Shown here one piece after another: positions 9,502 to 16,776 of a stretch of 18,640 bases of DNA (within the stretch, counting starts at the first letter, position 1; each line of letters opens with the position of its first letter). The position numbers and the translations under genes were made by a program. Source of the stretch: Candidatus Scybalocola fimicaballi (GTDB taxonomy: Bacteria > Bacteroidota > Bacteroidia > Bacteroidales > Paludibacteraceae); assembly GCA_002317115.1 (NCBI GenBank), contig DCIP01000193.1, positions 3,830 through 22,469 of the forward strand, in the 5' to 3' direction. Under the pieces are notes generated by a model. The model did not search any database. It saw only the letters and a program-made list of their open reading frames with translations, and was not told where the DNA came from.

Positions 9502-10485
9502 TTAATAATTTGCTTTTGCAGGTTTTGTTCCAAAATGAGATTTCATGATTTCTATGTATTTTGAGTTATCCCAAATTTGCCCATATATTGGATCATAATA
9601 TATCCAATCACTCAGATTATCTACTGACTTCAAATGACCAGTCTGAATCTGAGTTTGAACCCATGGTCCGCCATACATTATCATTCCATTAAGCATACTT
9701 ATTTCTGATGGACCATTAGCATCTGGAGTTTGATGTCTTATTGATGCATTATGACCAGCTCCATGAATAGTCAAATACGTTGCAAATCCAACAGGATCTG
9801 TATTATATGAACCACATTCATTAATTATAGCGTTTACATCTAAAGCTATCACATCCGTTTTAGGAACAAATTCAAATTTTCGTTTAATAGGATCTATCAA
9901 ACGTGGATATATAGCAGTGGATCTTTCCGGATTATCAGATCCTCCATGCCAATCTCCATATTGAGAGTTAAAGAATTCCTTTGAACATCGTTTAGATATA
10001 AAGGATCTAACCTTATCAGCAGCCCCTAGAACAACATATGAATCCGTATCATCCATTCGACCAGGATCAAAATTTTGTCCATCAGGAGCAAGTGTCATCC
10101 TAGTATTTAGACCTAATTTAAAAAATTTATCATTTACCTTATCTATATAACGCTGTATTCCTATTTTATCCTCTTCTTGAAGATTTACCAAATAAATCGT
10201 ATTCTCCCTTCCATCCGGATCAACCAACTTCACCGGATTTCCCATACAATAATTATATGGAGACATTCCAGCATACTTCTCCCACATCGGATCCACACTC
10301 AACCACATTGCTCCCGTAGGATCCAAGTATCTGGCTCCATAGTAGTACAAACCTGTTTCGTTGTCAAGTTCTTTGGCATTGAACAAGAAATTAGTTGAGA
10401 ATTGGGAATTACGCTCCTCCACAAACACTTCTCCGTAAGGAATGTATTCGATGTGCTGGGCGATGTTTCCATCGGCATCGGTCAA
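9502..10485 (-). CDS. Orphan Rhs C-terminal cassette with zincin-like toxin domain
   Basis: About 327 residues are readable from a TTG at 10485. Residues 1-94 are the Rhs core end: TDADGNIAQHIEYIPYGE, FNAKELDNETGLYYYGARYLDP, and the closing NPVKLVDPDGRE that separates core from toxin. Residues 95-327 are the variable tip. In it, HGAGHNASIRH (His241, His245, His251) has the H-x3-H-x5-H spacing of metzincin zinc sites, and GMIMYGG (265-271) could be the Met-turn. The catalytic Glu expected at 242 is Gly. There is no ATG start: the frame opens only 10 codons further upstream, inside a C-rich repeat, so the Rhs gene is 5'-truncated. It may be silent until recombined with a full Rhs gene, or simply decayed. 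A lipoprotein gene follows after one base. Confidence 0.75.
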   Translation of the reverse strand: MTDADGNIAQHIEYIPYGEVFVEERNSQFSTNFLFNAKELDNETGLYYYGARYLDPTGAMWLSVDPMWEKYAGMSPYNYCMGNPVKLVDPDGRENTIYLVNLQEEDKIGIQRYIDKVNDKFFKLGLNTRMTLAPDGQNFDPGRMDDTDSYVVLGAADKVRSFISKRCSKEFFNSQYGDWHGGSDNPERSTAIYPRLIDPIKRKFEFVPKTDVIALDVNAIINECGSYNTDPVGFATYLTIHGAGHNASIRHQTPDANGPSEISMLNGMIMYGGPWVQTQIQTGHLKSVDNLSDWIYYDPIYGQIWDNSKYIEIMKSHFGTKPAKANY

Positions 10486-10727: not shown

Positions 10728-10749
10728 TGCTAAAATAATTGCCAAATAT

Positions 10750-10780
10750 TTTGATTTATTATCAATGTTATCTAATTTTG
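10750..10780 (+). promoter_or_regulatory. trp operon promoter
   Basis: TTTG (10750-10753) and TAATTTTG (10773-10780) are exactly 19 bases apart, the best -33/-7 match in the window. Transcription should start near 10787. An inverted repeat GTCAAT (10783-10788)/ATTGAC (10795-10800) lies at the start region. Confidence 0.8.
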
Positions 10781-10804
10781 CAGTCAATAAAACCATTGAC
10801 ATTT

Positions 10805-10903
10805 ATGGATTACCAAAGAATACATAGATATTGGCGATGGTGGCTTTCTTCAGAGATAAATAGAAGTGAAGCAGTCGCCTACTCAAAAAGCTTACGTAAA
10901 TAA
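10805..10903 (+). CDS. trpL: trp leader peptide (attenuation sensor)
   Basis: This 32-residue peptide begins MDYQRIHRYWRWWLSS and ends SLRK. It has three Trp codons within four positions (residues 10, 12 and 13; bases 10832-10843), although Trp is normally rare. It starts about 18 bases after the predicted transcription start and precedes trpB by about 150 bases. Its codons overlap RNA segment 1 of the attenuator, and segment 2 also lies inside the frame, at 10863-10879. The logic matches the enterobacterial trp leader: ribosomes pausing for charged tRNA-Trp control which hairpin forms. The start has no strong Shine-Dalgarno site, which is normal in this phylum. The symbol reflects role, not sequence homology. 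Confidence 0.85.
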   Translation: MDYQRIHRYWRWWLSSEINRSEAVAYSKSLRK

Positions 10904-11026
10904 TCAATTTACGGTTCATTGTCGGATTCATCAAGGCGCGAATCTGATGATGTTTTTGCGTTTATGTATTAAGGTAACTGAAATATAGCATAAGGCTGTT
11001 TCACTTCTGGTGAGACGGCCTTTTTT
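10833..11026 (+). promoter_or_regulatory. Four-segment transcription attenuator of the trp operon
   Basis: Segment 1 (10833-10851, over the Trp codons) can pair with segment 2 (10863-10879): GGCGA with TCGCC, CTT with AAG, and CTTC with GAAG. Segment 2 can instead pair with segment 3: AGAAGTGAAGCAG (10862-10874) with CTGTTTCACTTCT (10996-11008), 13 pairs including one G-U. Segment 3 also pairs with segment 4 (11010-11022) as the terminator. A ribosome stalled at the Trp codons covers segment 1, which frees 2 to pair with 3 and prevents termination. With ample Trp, 1:2 and 3:4 form. Two more hairpins (10895-10913 at the leader stop, 10919-10950) lie between. Confidence 0.85.
10992..11026 (+). 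terminator. Attenuator terminator before trpB
   Basis: The 13-bp stem AAGGCTGTTTCAC/GTGAGACGGCCTT has two wobbles and a 5-base TTCTG loop. It is followed by a T-run ending at 11026, 30 bases before the trpB ATG. Confidence 0.9.
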
Positions 11027-11056
11027 CATTTAGAAAAAATAAAAAGATTTACATAT

Positions 11057-12247
11057 ATGAATAATTACGAAGTAAGCAAAGAGGGTTACTACGGAGAATT
11101 CGGTGGAAGCTACATTCCAGAGATTCTTCATAAGGTGGTTTACGATCTTCAGGCTCAGTATGAGGAGATTATGAACAGCAAGGATTTCAAGGAGGAGTTT
11201 CACGCTCTTCTTAAGGATTACGTTGGCCGTCCATCTCCACTTTACTATGCAAGCCGTTTGAGCGAGAAGTATGGTTGCAAGGTCTATCTAAAGCGTGAGG
11301 ATCTTAACCACACTGGTGCTCACAAGATCAACAACTCACTTGGTCAGATTCTTCTTGCTAAGAAGATGGGTAAGACTCGTATCATCTGCGAGACTGGCGC
11401 TGGCCAGCATGGTGTGGCTACTGCCACTGCTTGTGCTCTTATGAATCTTCCTTGCGTTGTCTACATGGGTGCAACTGATGTTGAGCGTCAGAAACCAAAC
11501 GTGGAGAGAATGAAGATGTTGGGAGCAACAGTTGTTCCTGTACAGAGTGGTAATAAGACATTGAAGGATGCCTGCAACGAGGCTATCCGCGACTGGTGTA
11601 CTAATCCACACGACACTTTCTATATCATCGGTAGTACAATGGGTCCTCACCCATATCCTGAGATGGTGGCAAGAATGCAGAGTGTCATCAGTGAGGAGAT
11701 CAAATGGCAGATCAAAGAGAAAGAGGGTAGAGACTATCCTGACTACTTGATGGCTTGCATCGGTGGTGGATCAAACGCTGCTGGTACTATCTATCATTAT
11801 AAGAGCGACGAGAGAGTTAAGATCGTTCTTGCTGAGGCTGGTGGTCTTGGCGTCGAGACTGGCGAGACTGCAGCGTCGCTAAATATCGGTACTGTCGGAA
11901 TCCTTCACGGTTCGAAGATGTATGTTATGCAGACTGAGGATGGTCAGATCATTGAGCCATATTCAATCTCTGCCGGACTTGATTATCCTGGCGTCGGACC
12001 ATTGCATTGCCAGATGTTCAAGGATGGAAGAAGCAACGTGCTTCCTATCACAGACCAGGAGGCTCTTGACGCTGCTTTCGAGCTGACTAAACTTGAGGGT
12101 ATCATCCCTGCTCTTGAGAGTGCTCACGCTCTTGCTCTTCTTCCAAGATTGAAAGATAAGTTCAAGAAGGACGACGTCGTTGTCTTGACTGTCTCTGGAC
12201 GTGGTGACAAGGATATGCAAACTTATTTGAAACACCTTAACAAATAA
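11057..12247 (+). CDS. trpB: Tryptophan synthase beta chain
   Basis: At 396 residues it has normal length for TrpB, the PLP enzyme that joins indole and serine into tryptophan in the alpha2-beta2 complex. The PLP-binding Lys is Lys90 in HTGAHKINN, and the catalytic Glu is Glu112 in ETGAGQHG; both are shifted by 3 from Salmonella numbering (87 and 109). GGGSNAAGT binds the cofactor phosphate, and [15 protein letters not shown] is a family signature. It is the first structural gene after the attenuator and lies 5 bases before trpA. Start choice: [17 protein letters not shown] gives the usual N-terminus, with A-rich sequence upstream. Confidence 0.98.
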
Positions 12248-12252
12248 TTACA

Positions 12253-13026
12253 ATGACAAGAATTTCACGCCTTTTCCAAGAAAAGGAAAAAGATATATTT
12301 TCAGTCTACTTCTCATCAGGTTATCCTACAGTAGACTCGGCTCCACGCATCATCAAGGCTTTGTCTGATGCTGGTGTGGACATGATTGAGATCGGTATCC
12401 CATTCTCAGATCCGTTGGCTGACGGTCCTGTGATTCAGCGTAGTAACTCTATCGCTTTGAAGAACGGTATCTCTCAGAAACTTCTTTTTGAGCAGATTAA
12501 GGATATCCGTAAGGTGACAGATATTCCATTGATTTTCATGGGTTATATCAACTGTGCTTTGCAGTACGGTTTCGAGAATCTATGTAAGAAGGCTGTAGAG
12601 ATTGGTATCGACGGAATTATCCTTCCAGACCTTCCAGTCGACGAGTACAATGCTGAGTATCGTCCAATCGTTGAGAAGTATGGTCTTGACTTCATCCACT
12701 TGATCACTCCTGAGACAAGCGATGAGAGAATCCGTCAAATCGACGAGGCAAGTACAGGTTTCGTTTATATGGTTTCGTCTGCCGGCACAACAGGTGCTCA
12801 GAGCAGTTTCGCACAGAGCAAGCAGGATTATTTCAAGCGTATCAAGGCTATGAATTTGAAGAATCCTACATTGGTTGGATTCGGAGTTTCAAACCAGGAG
12901 ACTTTCCGCGCTGCAGCTGATAATTCACGTGGAGCTATCGTTGGTAGCCAGTTTATCAAGGAGCTTGACGCTAATCCTACAATTGAGGACGCTGTCAGCT
13001 CACTAATCAAGAAAATTAAAGGTTGA
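12253..13026 (+). CDS. trpA: Tryptophan synthase alpha chain
   Basis: This 257-residue TIM-barrel enzyme cleaves indole-3-glycerol phosphate to indole and glyceraldehyde 3-phosphate and channels indole to TrpB. Both catalytic acids are present: Glu46 in MIEIGIPFSDP and Asp57 in LADGP, equivalent to 49 and 60 in Salmonella. The phosphate-binding region VGFGVSN (about 213-219) is also intact, as is the YMVSSAGTTGAQ loop. Spacing of 5 bases to trpB and 4 to trpE indicates one cotranscribed unit. Having trpA next to trpB and before trpE differs from the B-E-G-D-C-F-A type order I associate with Bacteroides. Confidence 0.98.
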   Translation: MTRISRLFQEKEKDIFSVYFSSGYPTVDSAPRIIKALSDAGVDMIEIGIPFSDPLADGPVIQRSNSIALKNGISQKLLFEQIKDIRKVTDIPLIFMGYINCALQYGFENLCKKAVEIGIDGIILPDLPVDEYNAEYRPIVEKYGLDFIHLITPETSDERIRQIDEASTGFVYMVSSAGTTGAQSSFAQSKQDYFKRIKAMNLKNPTLVGFGVSNQETFRAAADNSRGAIVGSQFIKELDANPTIEDAVSSLIKKIKG

Positions 13027-13030
13027 GGCT

Positions 13031-14425
13031 ATGTTTAAGTTTAAGACAAATGTCGTGACACTGTTGGGAGATATGCACACTCCCGTCGAGACATATCTTC
13101 GTGTCCGCGACCTTTATTCGCAGAGTGCATTGATGGAGAGCTCTGACTATCATGGTGGCGAGAACAACCGCTCATTTATCGGTTTGGAGCCAATCGCAAG
13201 CGTTTCGATCAGCCATGGAAAATGTTTGATGAAGTTTCCTGATGGAAGCCGACGCGAGCATACCGTCGACAAATCTTATCGTTCGGATCACGCTATCAAT
13301 GATTTCTTGAAGGAGATCTCTTGCGACGGTGAGTATTCCAACTATTGTGGACTTTACGGTTACACTTCATTCAACGCTGTCCGCTATTTCGAGGATATCA
13401 ACGTGAAGGATGAGGTCAACCAGTCGGCTGACGCTCCTGACATGCTTTACATCTTGTATCGCTATATCATCGTCTTCAATGATTTCAATAATGAGTTGAT
13501 GATTGTCGAGATGCTTCAGGATGGCGAGCAGAGCAGAATTGAGAGAGTCCGCACAGCAATCCGTGGTGGAAAGATCAACAATTTCGATTTCCACGCTATC
13601 GGCGAGACTACAAGTCCGTTGACAGACGAGGAGCACAAGGCAAACATCCGCAAGGGAATCGCACACTGTTTGCGTGGTGATGTATTCCAGATTGTGTTGT
13701 CAAGACGTTTCATCCAGAAATACGAAGGAGACGACTTCAAGTTGTATCGTGCGTTGAGAAGCATCAACCCGTCGCCATACCTATTCTATTTCGATTTTGG
13801 TGGATTCAGAATCTTCGGTTCAAGCCCTGAGACTCACTGCCGTATCGACGGTGATCAGGCTTACATTGATCCAATCGCAGGAACAACAAAGCGTACTGGC
13901 GACGCCGCTCAGGATGCCAAGAATGCTCAGTATCTTCACGATGATCCAAAGGAGAACGCAGAGCACGTGATGCTTGTCGACCTTGCCCGCAACGACTTGT
14001 CGCGCAACTGTCACGACGTCTACGTAGAGAAATACAAGGAGATGCAGTACTACAGTCACGTTATCCACTTGGTGAGCCGTGTGCGTGGTACACTTGATAA
14101 GGGAGCAGATCCAATCAAGGCATTCATCGACACATTCCCAGCAGGTACACTTTCTGGTGCACCAAAGGTAAGAGCCATGCAGTTGATCTCAGAGTACGAG
14201 CCACACAACCGTGGAGCATACGGAGGCTGTATTGGATTCATCGGTTTGAACAAGTCGTTGAACCAGGCAATCACAATCCGTACATTCGTAAGCCGTGGAG
14301 GTGAGCTATGGTTCCAGGCAGGTGGTGGTATTGTTGCCAAGAGTAACGAGGAGTACGAGTTGCAGGAGGTAAACAATAAGTTGGGTGCATTGCGTCGTGC
14401 CATCACAATCGCTGAGACACTTTAA
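13031..14425 (+). CDS. trpE: Anthranilate synthase component I
   Basis: This 464-residue protein makes anthranilate from chorismate with ammonia supplied by TrpG. The C-terminal chorismate-binding domain is complete: FQIVLSRRF, NPSPYLFYFDFGGF, GSSPE, PIAGTTKRTG, ENAEHVMLVDLARND, and FPAGTLSGAPKVRAM with GAYGGCIGF. The N-terminal LMESSD (residues 34-39) matches the LLES element that binds feedback-inhibiting tryptophan in known TrpE proteins, so allosteric control is likely in addition to attenuation. TrpE rather than PabB is favoured by this motif and by the operon. It follows trpA after 4 bases. trpG does not follow at once: 129 bases of repeats intervene. Confidence 0.96.
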   Translation: MFKFKTNVVTLLGDMHTPVETYLRVRDLYSQSALMESSDYHGGENNRSFIGLEPIASVSISHGKCLMKFPDGSRREHTVDKSYRSDHAINDFLKEISCDGEYSNYCGLYGYTSFNAVRYFEDINVKDEVNQSADAPDMLYILYRYIIVFNDFNNELMIVEMLQDGEQSRIERVRTAIRGGKINNFDFHAIGETTSPLTDEEHKANIRKGIAHCLRGDVFQIVLSRRFIQKYEGDDFKLYRALRSINPSPYLFYFDFGGFRIFGSSPETHCRIDGDQAYIDPIAGTTKRTGDAAQDAKNAQYLHDDPKENAEHVMLVDLARNDLSRNCHDVYVEKYKEMQYYSHVIHLVSRVRGTLDKGADPIKAFIDTFPAGTLSGAPKVRAMQLISEYEPHNRGAYGGCIGFIGLNKSLNQAITIRTFVSRGGELWFQAGGGIVAKSNEEYELQEVNNKLGALRRAITIAETL

Positions 14426-14426
14426 T

Positions 14427-14454
14427 AGCTTAGAGCTTAAAGCTTAGAGCTTAG
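14427..14454 (+). repeat. Four tandem copies of a 7-bp unit
   Basis: AGCTTAG is repeated four times (second copy AGCTTAA), starting two bases after the trpE stop. The function is unknown. Confidence 0.8.
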
Positions 14455-14460
14455 AGAAAA

Positions 14461-14536
14461 GGCATCAAGGTTTTGAGGATTTCAAAGGACGGAACGCCCT
14501 TGTCCCAAACACCACGCGAGCCCGTAAGGGCGAGCG
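14461..14536 (+). repeat. Dispersed hairpin repeat, copy B
   Basis: This is the inverse-orientation partner of 8678-8755. It has a hairpin with a GCCC/GGGC stem, a GTAA loop, GA opposite GA and an outer CGC/GCG stem. The stem differs from copy A (GTGC/GCAC) by paired changes that keep base pairing. It lies in the trp transcript between trpE and trpG. Confidence 0.75.
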
Positions 14537-14554
14537 AAATCAAAATTATATTAT

Positions 14555-15118
14555 ATGAAAATAGTAATTATAGATAACTACGATTCATTCACATACAACC
14601 TCTCTCACTTGGTCAAAGCACTAGGTGCAGACGTTACTGTGTATAGAAACGACCAGTTCAAATTGCCAGATCTACAGCAGTTTGACAAAATCATATTGAG
14701 CCCAGGCCCTGGTATCCCAACAGAAGCCGGCTTGCTTATGAACGTGATTGCCGAGTATAAAGGCAAGAAACCAATCTTAGGAGTTTGCCTTGGCCACCAG
14801 GCAATCGGAGAGAGTTTTGGAGGAACATTGACAAACCTATCCGACGTATTCCACGGAGTGCAGACAGACATCGACATCACAGTTGACGACTATGTGTTTG
14901 CAGGATTGGAGAAGAGAATCCCCGTCGGAAGATATCACTCATGGGTAGTCGACGCGAAAGGATTCCCAGCTGATTTGGAGATCACAGCAGTATCTGGCGA
15001 AGGACAGGTAATGGCATTGCGTCACAAGACCTTTGATATCAGAGGCATCCAGTTCCATCCAGAATCAGTGCTTACTCCAGACGGAAAGCAAATGATCAAA
15101 AACTGGTTGGAGCATTAA
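14555..15118 (+). CDS. trpG: Anthranilate synthase component II, glutamine amidotransferase
   Basis: This 187-residue class I glutamine amidotransferase releases ammonia from glutamine for TrpE. The triad is Cys78 in LGVCLGHQAIG with His168 and Glu170 in QFHPESVL; the N-terminal DNYDSFTYNL and oxyanion SPGPGIP are typical. The length fits a stand-alone TrpG with no TrpD fusion. The same fold is shared by PabA, but location in the trp operon favours TrpG, which may serve both. It is separated from trpE by repeats and is the last trp gene here; a terminator follows at 15185. Confidence 0.95.
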   Translation: MKIVIIDNYDSFTYNLSHLVKALGADVTVYRNDQFKLPDLQQFDKIILSPGPGIPTEAGLLMNVIAEYKGKKPILGVCLGHQAIGESFGGTLTNLSDVFHGVQTDIDITVDDYVFAGLEKRIPVGRYHSWVVDAKGFPADLEITAVSGEGQVMALRHKTFDIRGIQFHPESVLTPDGKQMIKNWLEH

Positions 15119-15327: not shown

Positions 15328-16776
15328 ATGATTTTTAACTCATTAGAATATTTGATATTCTTGCCGGTAGTGTTCTTGCTTTATTGGTATGTGTTCAAGA
15401 GTCTTAGATGGCAGAATCTGTTTGTTGTCGTCGTGTCATATTTCTTTTACGGAATGTGGGACTGCAAATTCCTTTTGCTTATCGCTTTCACGACACTCTG
15501 CAGCTTTGTGACTGGTATTGTGATTGGCAGTGATGTCGAAAAAGGAAATGTCAGCAAAGCGAAAGCTGTTTGTGTTTCCAATGTGGTTATAAATCTGCTG
15601 ATACTTGGAATATTCAAGTATTATAATTTTTTCGCCGACAGCTTCGTTAGCTTTATGTCTTATCTGGGAATCTCTGTTCATGCGACGTCTCTCAAATTGA
15701 TTCTCCCTGTCGGTATTTCTTTCTACACTTTTCAAGCTTTGAGTTATTCTATTGACGTCTATAAGGGAAAATTGGCGGCGACACGTGACATCATATCTTT
15801 TTTCGCATTCATTAGTTTTTTCCCTCAACTTGTGGCGGGCCCCATAGAAAGGGCTACGAATCTCCTGCCTCAGTTTGCTAAAGCCCGAATATTCGAATAT
15901 GATAAGGCTGTCGACGGAATGCGTCTCATCCTTTGGGGGTTGTTCAAGAAGATTGTCATAGCAGACAACTGTGCTGAATTCGTGGATAAGGTGTTCAACA
16001 ATTACGAGGCTCACAACGGAAGTACTCTGGCTCTTGCCGGTCTCTTTTTCGCTTTTCAGATTTACGGAGATTTTTCTGGATATTCGGATATAGCTATCGG
16101 TACGGCCAAACTGTTTGGTATCTCGCTTAGGGACAATTTCAGAATGCCATATTTTAGCCGTGATATTGCGGAGTTCTGGAAAAGGTGGCATATCTCATTG
16201 AACAAGTGGTTTGTGGACTATGTTTATATCCCGCTTGGCGGAAGCAGATGCAGTAAGATTCTTGTGGCAAGAAACGTATTTGTCATATTTCTGTTGAGTG
16301 GACTTTGGCACGGAGCCAACTGGACGTATGTTGCGTGGGGCGCTTATCACGCCTGTTTGTTCCTTCCGTTGATTATGCTGAATCTCAACAAGCGTAATAC
16401 TGATGTTGTGGCTAAAGACAAGAAATGCCCGTCGGCTAAAGAATTCTTCAGTATGCTTCTGACATTTGTGCTTGTGATCATTGGATGGATTATTTTCCGC
16501 GCGGACAACATTACTGCGGCTTATGATATTCTTGCTAAGGTTTTGAATGTCGCGTCGTGGGAAAATACGTGGTTTTCTATGACATACAAGACTCCTGTCA
16601 TAATTGCAATCTTTCTTTGTCTGATCGTTGAATGGATAAACAGAACCAGAGCCCACAGTTTTGAATTTAGCTGGATAAAGAATAAATATGTCCATTTCGC
16701 AATGTATTATTTCATTGTCGCTTGTATTGTATTGTTCTCTGGCCAAAACGTCACTTTCATTTATTTCCAGTTCTAA
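15328..16776 (+). CDS. MBOAT-family membrane O-acyltransferase (AlgI-like)
   Basis: This 482-residue protein has many membrane spans and the signature of the AlgI/DltB/PatA branch of MBOAT proteins. It contains YFFYGMWDCKF near the start, FFPQLVAGPIERA in the middle, the first conserved His at 288 (EFWKRWHISLNKWF), and the active-site His at 328 (GLWHGANWTYVAWGAYHA). Family members move an acyl group, usually acetyl, from the cytoplasm across the membrane to a partner that modifies alginate, peptidoglycan or another glycan. A putative SGNH-type partner starts 5 bases after its stop, which strongly suggests a two-component O-acetylation system. The target glycan is not indicated. The symbol is withheld because the substrate is unknown. 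Confidence 0.93.
   Translation: MIFNSLEYLIFLPVVFLLYWYVFKSLRWQNLFVVVVSYFFYGMWDCKFLLLIAFTTLCSFVTGIVIGSDVEKGNVSKAKAVCVSNVVINLLILGIFKYYNFFADSFVSFMSYLGISVHATSLKLILPVGISFYTFQALSYSIDVYKGKLAATRDIISFFAFISFFPQLVAGPIERATNLLPQFAKARIFEYDKAVDGMRLILWGLFKKIVIADNCAEFVDKVFNNYEAHNGSTLALAGLFFAFQIYGDFSGYSDIAIGTAKLFGISLRDNFRMPYFSRDIAEFWKRWHISLNKWFVDYVYIPLGGSRCSKILVARNVFVIFLLSGLWHGANWTYVAWGAYHACLFLPLIMLNLNKRNTDVVAKDKKCPSAKEFFSMLLTFVLVIIGWIIFRADNITAAYDILAKVLNVASWENTWFSMTYKTPVIIAIFLCLIVEWINRTRAHSFEFSWIKNKYVHFAMYYFIVACIVLFSGQNVTFIYFQF

What the first reader, a model, noticed from the sequence alone, without database searches (positions are those of the whole stretch)
10805..11026. Complete Trp-codon ribosome-mediated attenuator in a Bacteroidales trp operon
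Seen directly: a 32-codon leader frame with three Trp codons in four positions, a strong terminator 30 bases before trpB, a 13-pair antiterminator (10862-10874 with 10996-11008), and a competing hairpin that covers the Trp codons. Established: in the enterobacterial trp leader this four-segment layout switches transcription according to charged tRNA-Trp. Inference: the same switch works here. The leader peptide and the long spacing (about 117 bases) between segments 2 and 3 differ from the E. coli form. I cannot check whether this has been described in this phylum.
Basis: partly seen in the sequence, partly recalled or inferred. Interest (0 to 1): 0.85.

Follow-up and report, generated by a model that had tools for sequence, protein, structure and literature searches.

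The report
Stretched tryptophan attenuator in Bacteroidales
In front of the tryptophan genes of an uncultured gut-type bacterium lies an RNA switch that most likely turns the genes on when a ribosome stalls for lack of tryptophan; such switches were already predicted in this phylum, and this one is a longer, rebuilt version found so far in one genus.

Summary
A 32-codon leader (10805-10903) with Trp-Arg-Trp-Trp, a hairpin over the Trp codons (1:2), a 13-15 pair antiterminator (2:3) and an intrinsic terminator (3:4) precede trpBAEG. The seven trpB-bearing genomes of the genus (of nine held) keep all of them. Three Trp within four codons occur in 0 of 5000 shuffles. Ribosome-mediated attenuation is the best explanation; it is inferred, nothing here measures read-through.

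The kind is not new to the phylum: Rfam holds RF01692 'Bacteroid-trp' (row of Table 1 in PMC2864571). Of 96 usable trpB-upstream regions outside the genus, 58 carry a Trp-rich leader plus terminator.

The window's version is divergent. RF01692 finds none of the seven genus copies, though it also finds only 19 of 56 other leaders above cut-off. Segments 2 and 3 lie about 115-117 nt apart (28-91 in the other 58), with a conserved hairpin plus U-run between. Its antiterminator takes the terminator's 5' arm. In 50 of 58 relatives an 8-nt segment 2 pairs with the terminator loop and top of the 3' arm instead, with compensatory changes.

The parts
10749..10780 (+). Bacteroidota-type promoter: TTTTG 10749-10753 and TAATTTTG (TAnnTTTG) 10773-10780; transcript start estimated near 10787
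   Evidence: Sequence; 10770-10781 invariant in 7 of 7 genus members. TAnnTTTG as the phylum's promoter motif is stated in a passage of PMC6414381; the upstream TTTG element and the start estimate are recalled/inferred.
10805..10903 (+). Leader peptide frame, 32 codons, Trp-Arg-Trp-Trp at codons 10-13
   Evidence: frame kept in 7 of 7 genus members (32 codons in 5, 34 in L006 and L007); 0 of 5000 shuffles.
10833..10851 (+). Segment 1, overlapping the Trp codons; pairs with segment 2
   Evidence: 1:2 pairs in 105 of 105 cells; no variable base in 10832-10853.
10862..10879 (+). Segment 2, inside the leader frame; pairs with segment 1 (1:2) or segment 3 (2:3)
   Evidence: 10862-10876 no variable base in 7 genomes; 2:3 duplex -23.4 kcal/mol, 0 of 100 shuffles.
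10895..10913 (+). Small hairpin over the end of the leader frame (HpA)
   Evidence: 45 of 49 cells paired; one double change, 10897:10911 U-A to C-G.
10917..10957 (+). Hairpin of 13 pairs (10917-10952) followed by U5 (HpB), between segments 2 and 3; candidate polymerase pause site
   Evidence: 91 of 91 cells paired; U-run 5-7 long in the genus. Function inferred.
10994..11008 (+). Segment 3: 5' arm and loop of the terminator, partner of segment 2
   Evidence: 10994-11006 invariant in 7 of 7, while the 3' arm 11009-11022 varies at 4 of 14 positions.
10992..11026 (+). Intrinsic terminator (segments 3:4, stem 10992-11022, U-run to 11026)
   Evidence: -19.7 kcal/mol; 92 of 98 cells paired, the misses all at the innermost pair 11005:11009.
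11057..12247 (+). trpB, first gene of the controlled operon
   Evidence: TIGR00263 588.5 bits, cut-off 392.
12253..13026 (+). trpA
   Evidence: TIGR00262 224.1 bits, cut-off 102.
13031..14425 (+). trpE (anthranilate synthase component I)
   Evidence: PF00425 and PF04715 above cut-off; best NCBIfam TIGR00564 404 bits, below its cut-off of 518.
14555..15118 (+). trpG (glutamine amidotransferase of anthranilate synthase)
   Evidence: TIGR00566 187 bits, cut-off 121.

Best explanation
A ribosome-mediated transcription attenuator for trpBAEG. RNA polymerase makes the leader while a ribosome translates the short frame. If charged tRNA-Trp is scarce the ribosome halts on the Trp codons 10832-10843 and covers segment 1; segment 2, starting about 7 nt beyond the ribosome's edge, waits free and pairs with segment 3 as soon as that is made, before segment 4, so the terminator does not form and trpB is read. 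If tryptophan is ample the ribosome runs through segment 2 to the stop at 10903; segment 2 is then either covered or, once the ribosome has passed, held by segment 1, segment 3 is free to pair with segment 4, and transcription ends before trpB. The two hairpins in the long gap bring segments 2 and 3 together, and the second, with its U-run, probably makes polymerase pause just before segment 3. Shown: the sequence parts and their conservation. Inferred: every kinetic step, tryptophan dependence and the pause.
For: All parts present and kept in 7 of 7 trpB-bearing genus genomes. Conservation follows the RNA and the Trp codons, not the peptide: segments 1 and 2 and the Trp codons have no variable base, the 1:2 loop between them (still inside the frame) varies at 6 of 8 positions, segment 3 is invariant over 10994-11006 while segment 4 varies and keeps pairing through G-U/A-U swaps. 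Geometry: a ribosome with codon 13 in the A site, covering about 12 nt downstream (figure stated in PMC4833913, part 1 read), ends at 10855 and leaves 10862 free. Folding with the stalled ribosome's bases masked gives 2:3 at probability 0.99 when polymerase has made segment 3; with no ribosome or one at the stop, the full leader gives 3:4 at 1.00 and 1:2 at 0.68-0.71. Genes: trpB, trpA, trpE, trpG. Homologous layout upstream of trpB in 58 of 96 usable regions outside the genus, with covariation in the terminator and in the segment 2 pairing.
Against: No read-through or expression data. Equilibrium folding is not a clean switch: with no ribosome, or one at the stop, and polymerase at 11008-11015, 2:3 is still favoured (0.93-0.98) over 1:2 (0.01-0.04); and for the full leader with a stalled ribosome the terminator is slightly favoured (2:3 only 0.11-0.24). 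The mechanism therefore needs 1:2 to form first and persist, and 2:3 to form first under stalling. The 1:2 and 2:3 pairs never vary compensatorily within the genus, so there is no covariation proof for them in this variant; the two outer 2:3 pairs are lost in 6 and 4 of 7. The genus sample is 7 close genomes.
Confidence: 0.88

Rival explanations
1. A direct tRNA sensor (T-box-like) or a metabolite riboswitch reads tryptophan or tRNA-Trp, and the short frame is incidental.
For: The leader is structured (z -4.68) and about 240 nt long, room enough for a sensor domain.
Against: No T-box or riboswitch family appears among the Rfam matches of the window at E up to 1 or of 10780-11030 at E up to 10. 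A sensor would not need three Trp codons in an open frame kept in 7 of 7 genomes.
Confidence: 0.03
2. A trans-acting RNA-binding protein (TRAP-like) decides between 2:3 and 3:4.
For: Competing 2:3 and 3:4 structures are also used by protein-controlled attenuators (recalled).
Against: Does not explain the Trp codons or their overlap with segment 1. No search for a TRAP gene was made.
Confidence: 0.03
3. The terminator is a fixed brake (leaky, unregulated), and HpB is a second terminator in tandem.
For: HpB plus U5-U7 resembles an intrinsic terminator and has no obvious upstream antiterminator partner.
Against: Segment 3 is invariant where segment 4 is not, and a 13-pair partner for it is kept upstream in 7 of 7. 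If HpB ended most transcripts the downstream switch would be pointless.
Confidence: 0.06

Closest known systems
Bacteroid-trp RNA, Rfam RF01692 (Bacteroidete tryptophan peptide leader RNA)
   Same: Same phylum and order, same place upstream of trp genes, Trp-rich leader frame, hairpin over the Trp codons, followed by a terminator.
   Different: The covariance model finds no match in the window (stretch 10780-11030 at E up to 10) or in the six genus relatives (for L004, 44). Segments 2-3 are about 115-117 nt apart instead of 28-91; two extra hairpins; a frame that runs 27 nt past segment 2; antiterminator on the terminator's 5' arm.
Enterobacterial trp leader (trpL, Rfam RF00513; recalled, not compared here by sequence)
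   Same: Segment logic 1:2, 2:3, 3:4 with segment 2 taking the terminator's 5' arm and Trp codons in segment 1 (recalled layout).
   Different: Leader peptide 32 codons against 14 in E. coli (recalled); long structured gap between segments 2 and 3; stop codon lies beyond segment 2. No RF00513 match was listed.
Leader of L008 (G054), nearest trpB outside the genus (85% identical; sister in the tree)
   Same: trpBAEG order, Trp codons, terminator directly before trpB.
   Different: Short 16-codon leader with the ordinary segment 2 pairing to loop and 3' arm, so the long form looks derived within this lineage.

Membership tests
Leader-peptide (ribosome-mediated) transcription attenuators | Short translated-looking frame with clustered codons for the operon's amino acid | tested here: met
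   WRWW in 7 of 7 genus members; 0 of 5000 shuffles. Translation itself not shown.
Leader-peptide (ribosome-mediated) transcription attenuators | Intrinsic terminator between leader and first gene | tested here: met
   10992-11026.
Leader-peptide (ribosome-mediated) transcription attenuators | Mutually exclusive antiterminator and protector hairpin placed so that a stalled ribosome chooses between them | tested here: met
   1:2 and 2:3 share segment 2; 2:3 and 3:4 share segment 3. Met as anatomy only.
Leader-peptide (ribosome-mediated) transcription attenuators | Read-through depends on charging of tRNA-Trp | not testable with these tools
   Needs transcript data.
RF01692 Bacteroid-trp | Match to the covariance model at or above 49 bits | tested here: not met
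   0 of 7 genus copies; 10780-11030 not listed even at E up to 10. Caution: only 19 of 56 other Trp leaders reach 49 bits, 16 match below it and 21 not at all at E up to 1, so the model is narrow.
RF01692 Bacteroid-trp | Trp leader frame upstream of trp genes in Bacteroidota | tested here: met
Bacteroidales short trp leader (as surveyed here) | 8-nt segment 2 (GUCGURAG) pairing with terminator loop and top of 3' arm | tested here: not met
   In the genus the duplex with loop + 3' arm is no better than shuffles (27-83 of 100), that with 5' arm + loop is reached by 0 of 100, in 7 of 7.

The most novel reading that the evidence does not exclude
Bacteroidales trp attenuators come in two builds that swap within the order: the common short one, in which a segment 2 that usually overlaps the leader stop codon captures the terminator's loop and descending (3') arm, and a rarer one that captures the ascending (5') arm as in E. 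coli. The window's genus has gone over to the second build and inserted a pause hairpin between segments 2 and 3, so that polymerase waits for the ribosome at a point separate from the 1:2 hairpin. A 3'-arm-capturing antiterminator would be an uncommon way to block an intrinsic terminator.
Probability: 0.35. Interest if true: 0.5.

Novelty: new variant of a known kind. Interest (0 to 1): 0.36.

Why it matters
It widens the known range of the phylum's trp leader beyond the Rfam model, which misses this genus and most of the leaders I surveyed (19 of 56 above cut-off), and shows that a working-looking attenuator can be stretched and rewired between close relatives (L008 against the genus, 85% identical TrpB). 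Attenuation needs ribosome and polymerase to keep step; whether they do in Bacteroidota, whose translation starts do not rely on Shine-Dalgarno (stated in a passage of PMC9723704), can be tested directly on these leaders.

Tried and rejected
One search, a first scan for leaders, left minus-strand loci unreversed and so showed no leader in five genus copies; redone with orientation. One search, a genus alignment, used wrong coordinates for most rows and was not used; one search counts rest on the alignment.

Weak Rfam matches in the window (BTnc201, AaHKsRNA41; five) lie below cut-off and were set aside. RF00506 Thr_leader matches in relatives are below its cut-off of 55 bits; those on the leader strand sit on or near the terminator, and I read them as terminator resemblance.

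A second Trp leader before the separate trpD-trpC cluster was looked for in seven genus genomes and not seen: the short frames with two or more Trp listed there show no Trp cluster like WRWW directly before trpD, or lie inside genes. The pattern TGGCGNTGGTGG is too common to help (control pattern also matches).

In the survey I dropped L101 and L106 by hand from 60 outside rows (frames inside apparent upstream coding sequence, no convincing layout), leaving 58; L118 was kept. L081 (5 nt upstream) was unusable, leaving 96 of 97. About 38 of the weakest trpB places were not fetched.

The idea that the common short leaders individually prove 3'-arm capture was weakened: only 11 of 58 reach 1 of 100 shuffles or fewer for loop + 3' arm, and 5 of 58 for 5' arm + loop. 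The support lies in the alignment.

Full report
What is there. The window holds trpB, trpA, trpE and trpG (11057-15118) in this order, preceded by a promoter-like TAATTTTG at 10773-10780 and a leader of about 240 nt. The leader frame 10805-10903 encodes MDYQRIHRYWRWWLSSEINRSEAVAYSKSLRK. A terminator with a 14-pair stem (10992-11022) and a U-run lies about 30 nt before trpB. The fold is far more stable than shuffles (z -4.68, 0 of 200), and three Trp within four codons of a short frame appear in 0 of 5000 shuffles of the intergenic stretch.

Conservation in the genus. Nine genomes of the genus are held; seven have trpB at E up to 1e-100, and all seven carry this leader. Trp codons, segment 1, segment 2 and the core of segment 3 (10994-11006) do not vary. 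The loop between segments 1 and 2, though inside the frame, varies at 6 of 8 positions. Segment 4 varies at 4 of 14 positions; pairing with segment 3 is kept by G-U/A-U and G-C/G-U changes except at the innermost pair. So the constraint follows the RNA structures and the Trp codons rather than the peptide. L006 and L007 have insertions after segment 2 that change the frame's last codons yet leave a stop nearby (34 codons). Against this: the lack of variation means no compensatory proof for 1:2 or 2:3 here, and the outer two pairs of 2:3 hold in only 1 and 3 of 7. A full-length DNA match to the leader was found in 7 of 358 genomes of the family, all of this genus; four others gave only short matches of 29-51 nt.

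How it likely works. With the ribosome halted on the Trp codons, masked folding gives 2:3 at 0.99 once segment 3 is made; with no ribosome or one at the stop, the full leader gives the terminator at 1.00. Results that do not fit a simple equilibrium switch: before segment 4 exists, 2:3 is favoured even without a stalled ribosome (0.93-0.98), and with a stalled ribosome the full leader still slightly prefers the terminator (2:3 at 0.11-0.24). The switch must therefore be kinetic, decided by which helix forms first; that is the usual view of such attenuators (recalled) but is not shown here. A frame stop 27 nt beyond segment 2 means the finishing ribosome probably uncovers segments 1 and 2 together, letting 1:2 re-form; this is inference.

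The gap between segments 2 and 3. It contains HpA (10895-10913, one double change 10897:10911) and HpB (10917-10952, 91 of 91 cells paired, then U5-U7). HpB looks like a terminator or pause hairpin. I saw no upstream partner for its 5' arm, so I favour a pause that holds polymerase just before segment 3; untested.

The wider family. To avoid choosing genomes by their leaders I took the DNA upstream of trpB: 97 regions outside the genus (30-locus lists, 40 further regions, nine named loci), 96 usable; 58 carry a Trp-rich ATG frame followed by a terminator. The 38 without one were not examined further; trpB need not be the first gene there. RF01692 was run on 56 of the 58: 19 reach its cut-off of 49 bits, 16 match below it, 21 do not match at E up to 1; 0 of 7 in the genus. 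A genome-wide search found RF01692 in 37 of 393 Bacteroidales genomes at E up to 0.001, 21 over cut-off, and in 1 of 14 control genomes, a Bacteroides.

Two builds. In alignment A1 of the 58 the 8-nt GUCGURAG after the Trp codons pairs with the terminator loop and the top of its 3' arm: 86.0% of cells (shuffles 83.2, 0 of 500; slid versions at most 46.3%), 20 cells with both sides changed (8.9 expected, 0 of 500), covariation score 0.266 (1 of 500); less striking are the number of pairs with changes on both sides (23 of 500) and of pair types (69 of 500). Five of the eight pairs share letters with the terminator stem and so are not independent evidence; the clearest is column 48 (in the stop codon where the stop overlaps) with 205 (terminator loop): G-C 38, A-U 12, G-U 3, other 4. 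On a TrpB tree of 48 rows the A-U state needs 5 changes, at least 3 forced by well-supported branches. The terminator itself covaries strongly (93.7% of cells, 103 cells changed on both sides, 21.8 expected). Fifty of 58 rows form 6 or more of the 8 pairs; by duplex energy loop + 3' arm is stronger by at least 1 kcal/mol in 37 of 58 and 5' arm + loop in 13 of 58, among them L057, L058-L060, L009, L012 and L118. The stop codon overlaps this segment in 32 of 58, lies after it in 19 and before it in 7; the gap from segment 2 to the terminator is 28-91 nt, median 44, against about 115-117 in the window. The genus sits beside L008, which has the short build, and then L057, which has a 5'-arm antiterminator. 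Long frames that run past segment 2 also occur elsewhere (for example L009, L012, L042-L045), so that feature is not unique.

What is known. Bacteroid-trp is listed as a likely cis-regulatory RNA of Bacteroidetes in Table 1 of PMC2864571 (passages seen; its supplement was not available). PMC6414381 (passages) describes it as similar to the E. coli leader and conserved before the trp operon of Flavobacterium psychrophilum. PMC9723704 (passages) reports strong clues for leader peptide attenuation upstream of amino acid operons in that species; PMC7366714 (passages) notes leader-peptide-like short frames in B. thetaiotaomicron. A 2004 comparative study of attenuators that I recall as covering Bacteroidetes/Chlorobi was not seen. 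Searches listed no paper that I recognised as describing a long variant or 3'-arm capture; the library lacks most subscription journals, and a planned Term-seq search did not run.

Verdict.

Noticed in passing
window 14555-15118 and downstream; G003, G004, G006, G002 contigs: The trp operon is split in this genus: trpBAEG carry the attenuator, while trpC, behind an apparent trpD, lies about 13-16 kb away on the same contig in four genomes (other contigs in three). In G054 trpB, A, E, G, D, C are contiguous. No WRWW-like leader was seen before the separate cluster.
   Followed up: partly
A1 columns 43-50 and 203-210; e.g. L018, L062, L068: In the common Bacteroidales trp leaders the segment 2 motif GUCGURAG, in 32 of 58 overlapping the leader stop codon, pairs with the terminator loop and 3' arm with compensatory changes.
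   Followed up: yes
Rfam RF01692 against surveyed loci: The Rfam model reaches its own cut-off in only 19 of 56 Trp leaders tested outside the genus; it would gain from re-building.
   Followed up: partly
window 10917-10957: Hairpin plus U-run between segments 2 and 3, terminator-like, kept in 7 of 7 genomes; pause or second terminator unknown.
   Followed up: partly
window 9502-10485, minus strand: A protein with an RHS repeat-associated core domain (TIGR03696, 72.6 bits) lies directly upstream, divergent from the trp operon.
   Followed up: no
window 15328-16776: MBOAT-family O-acyltransferase directly after trpG (PF03062), where G054 has trpD and trpC.
   Followed up: no
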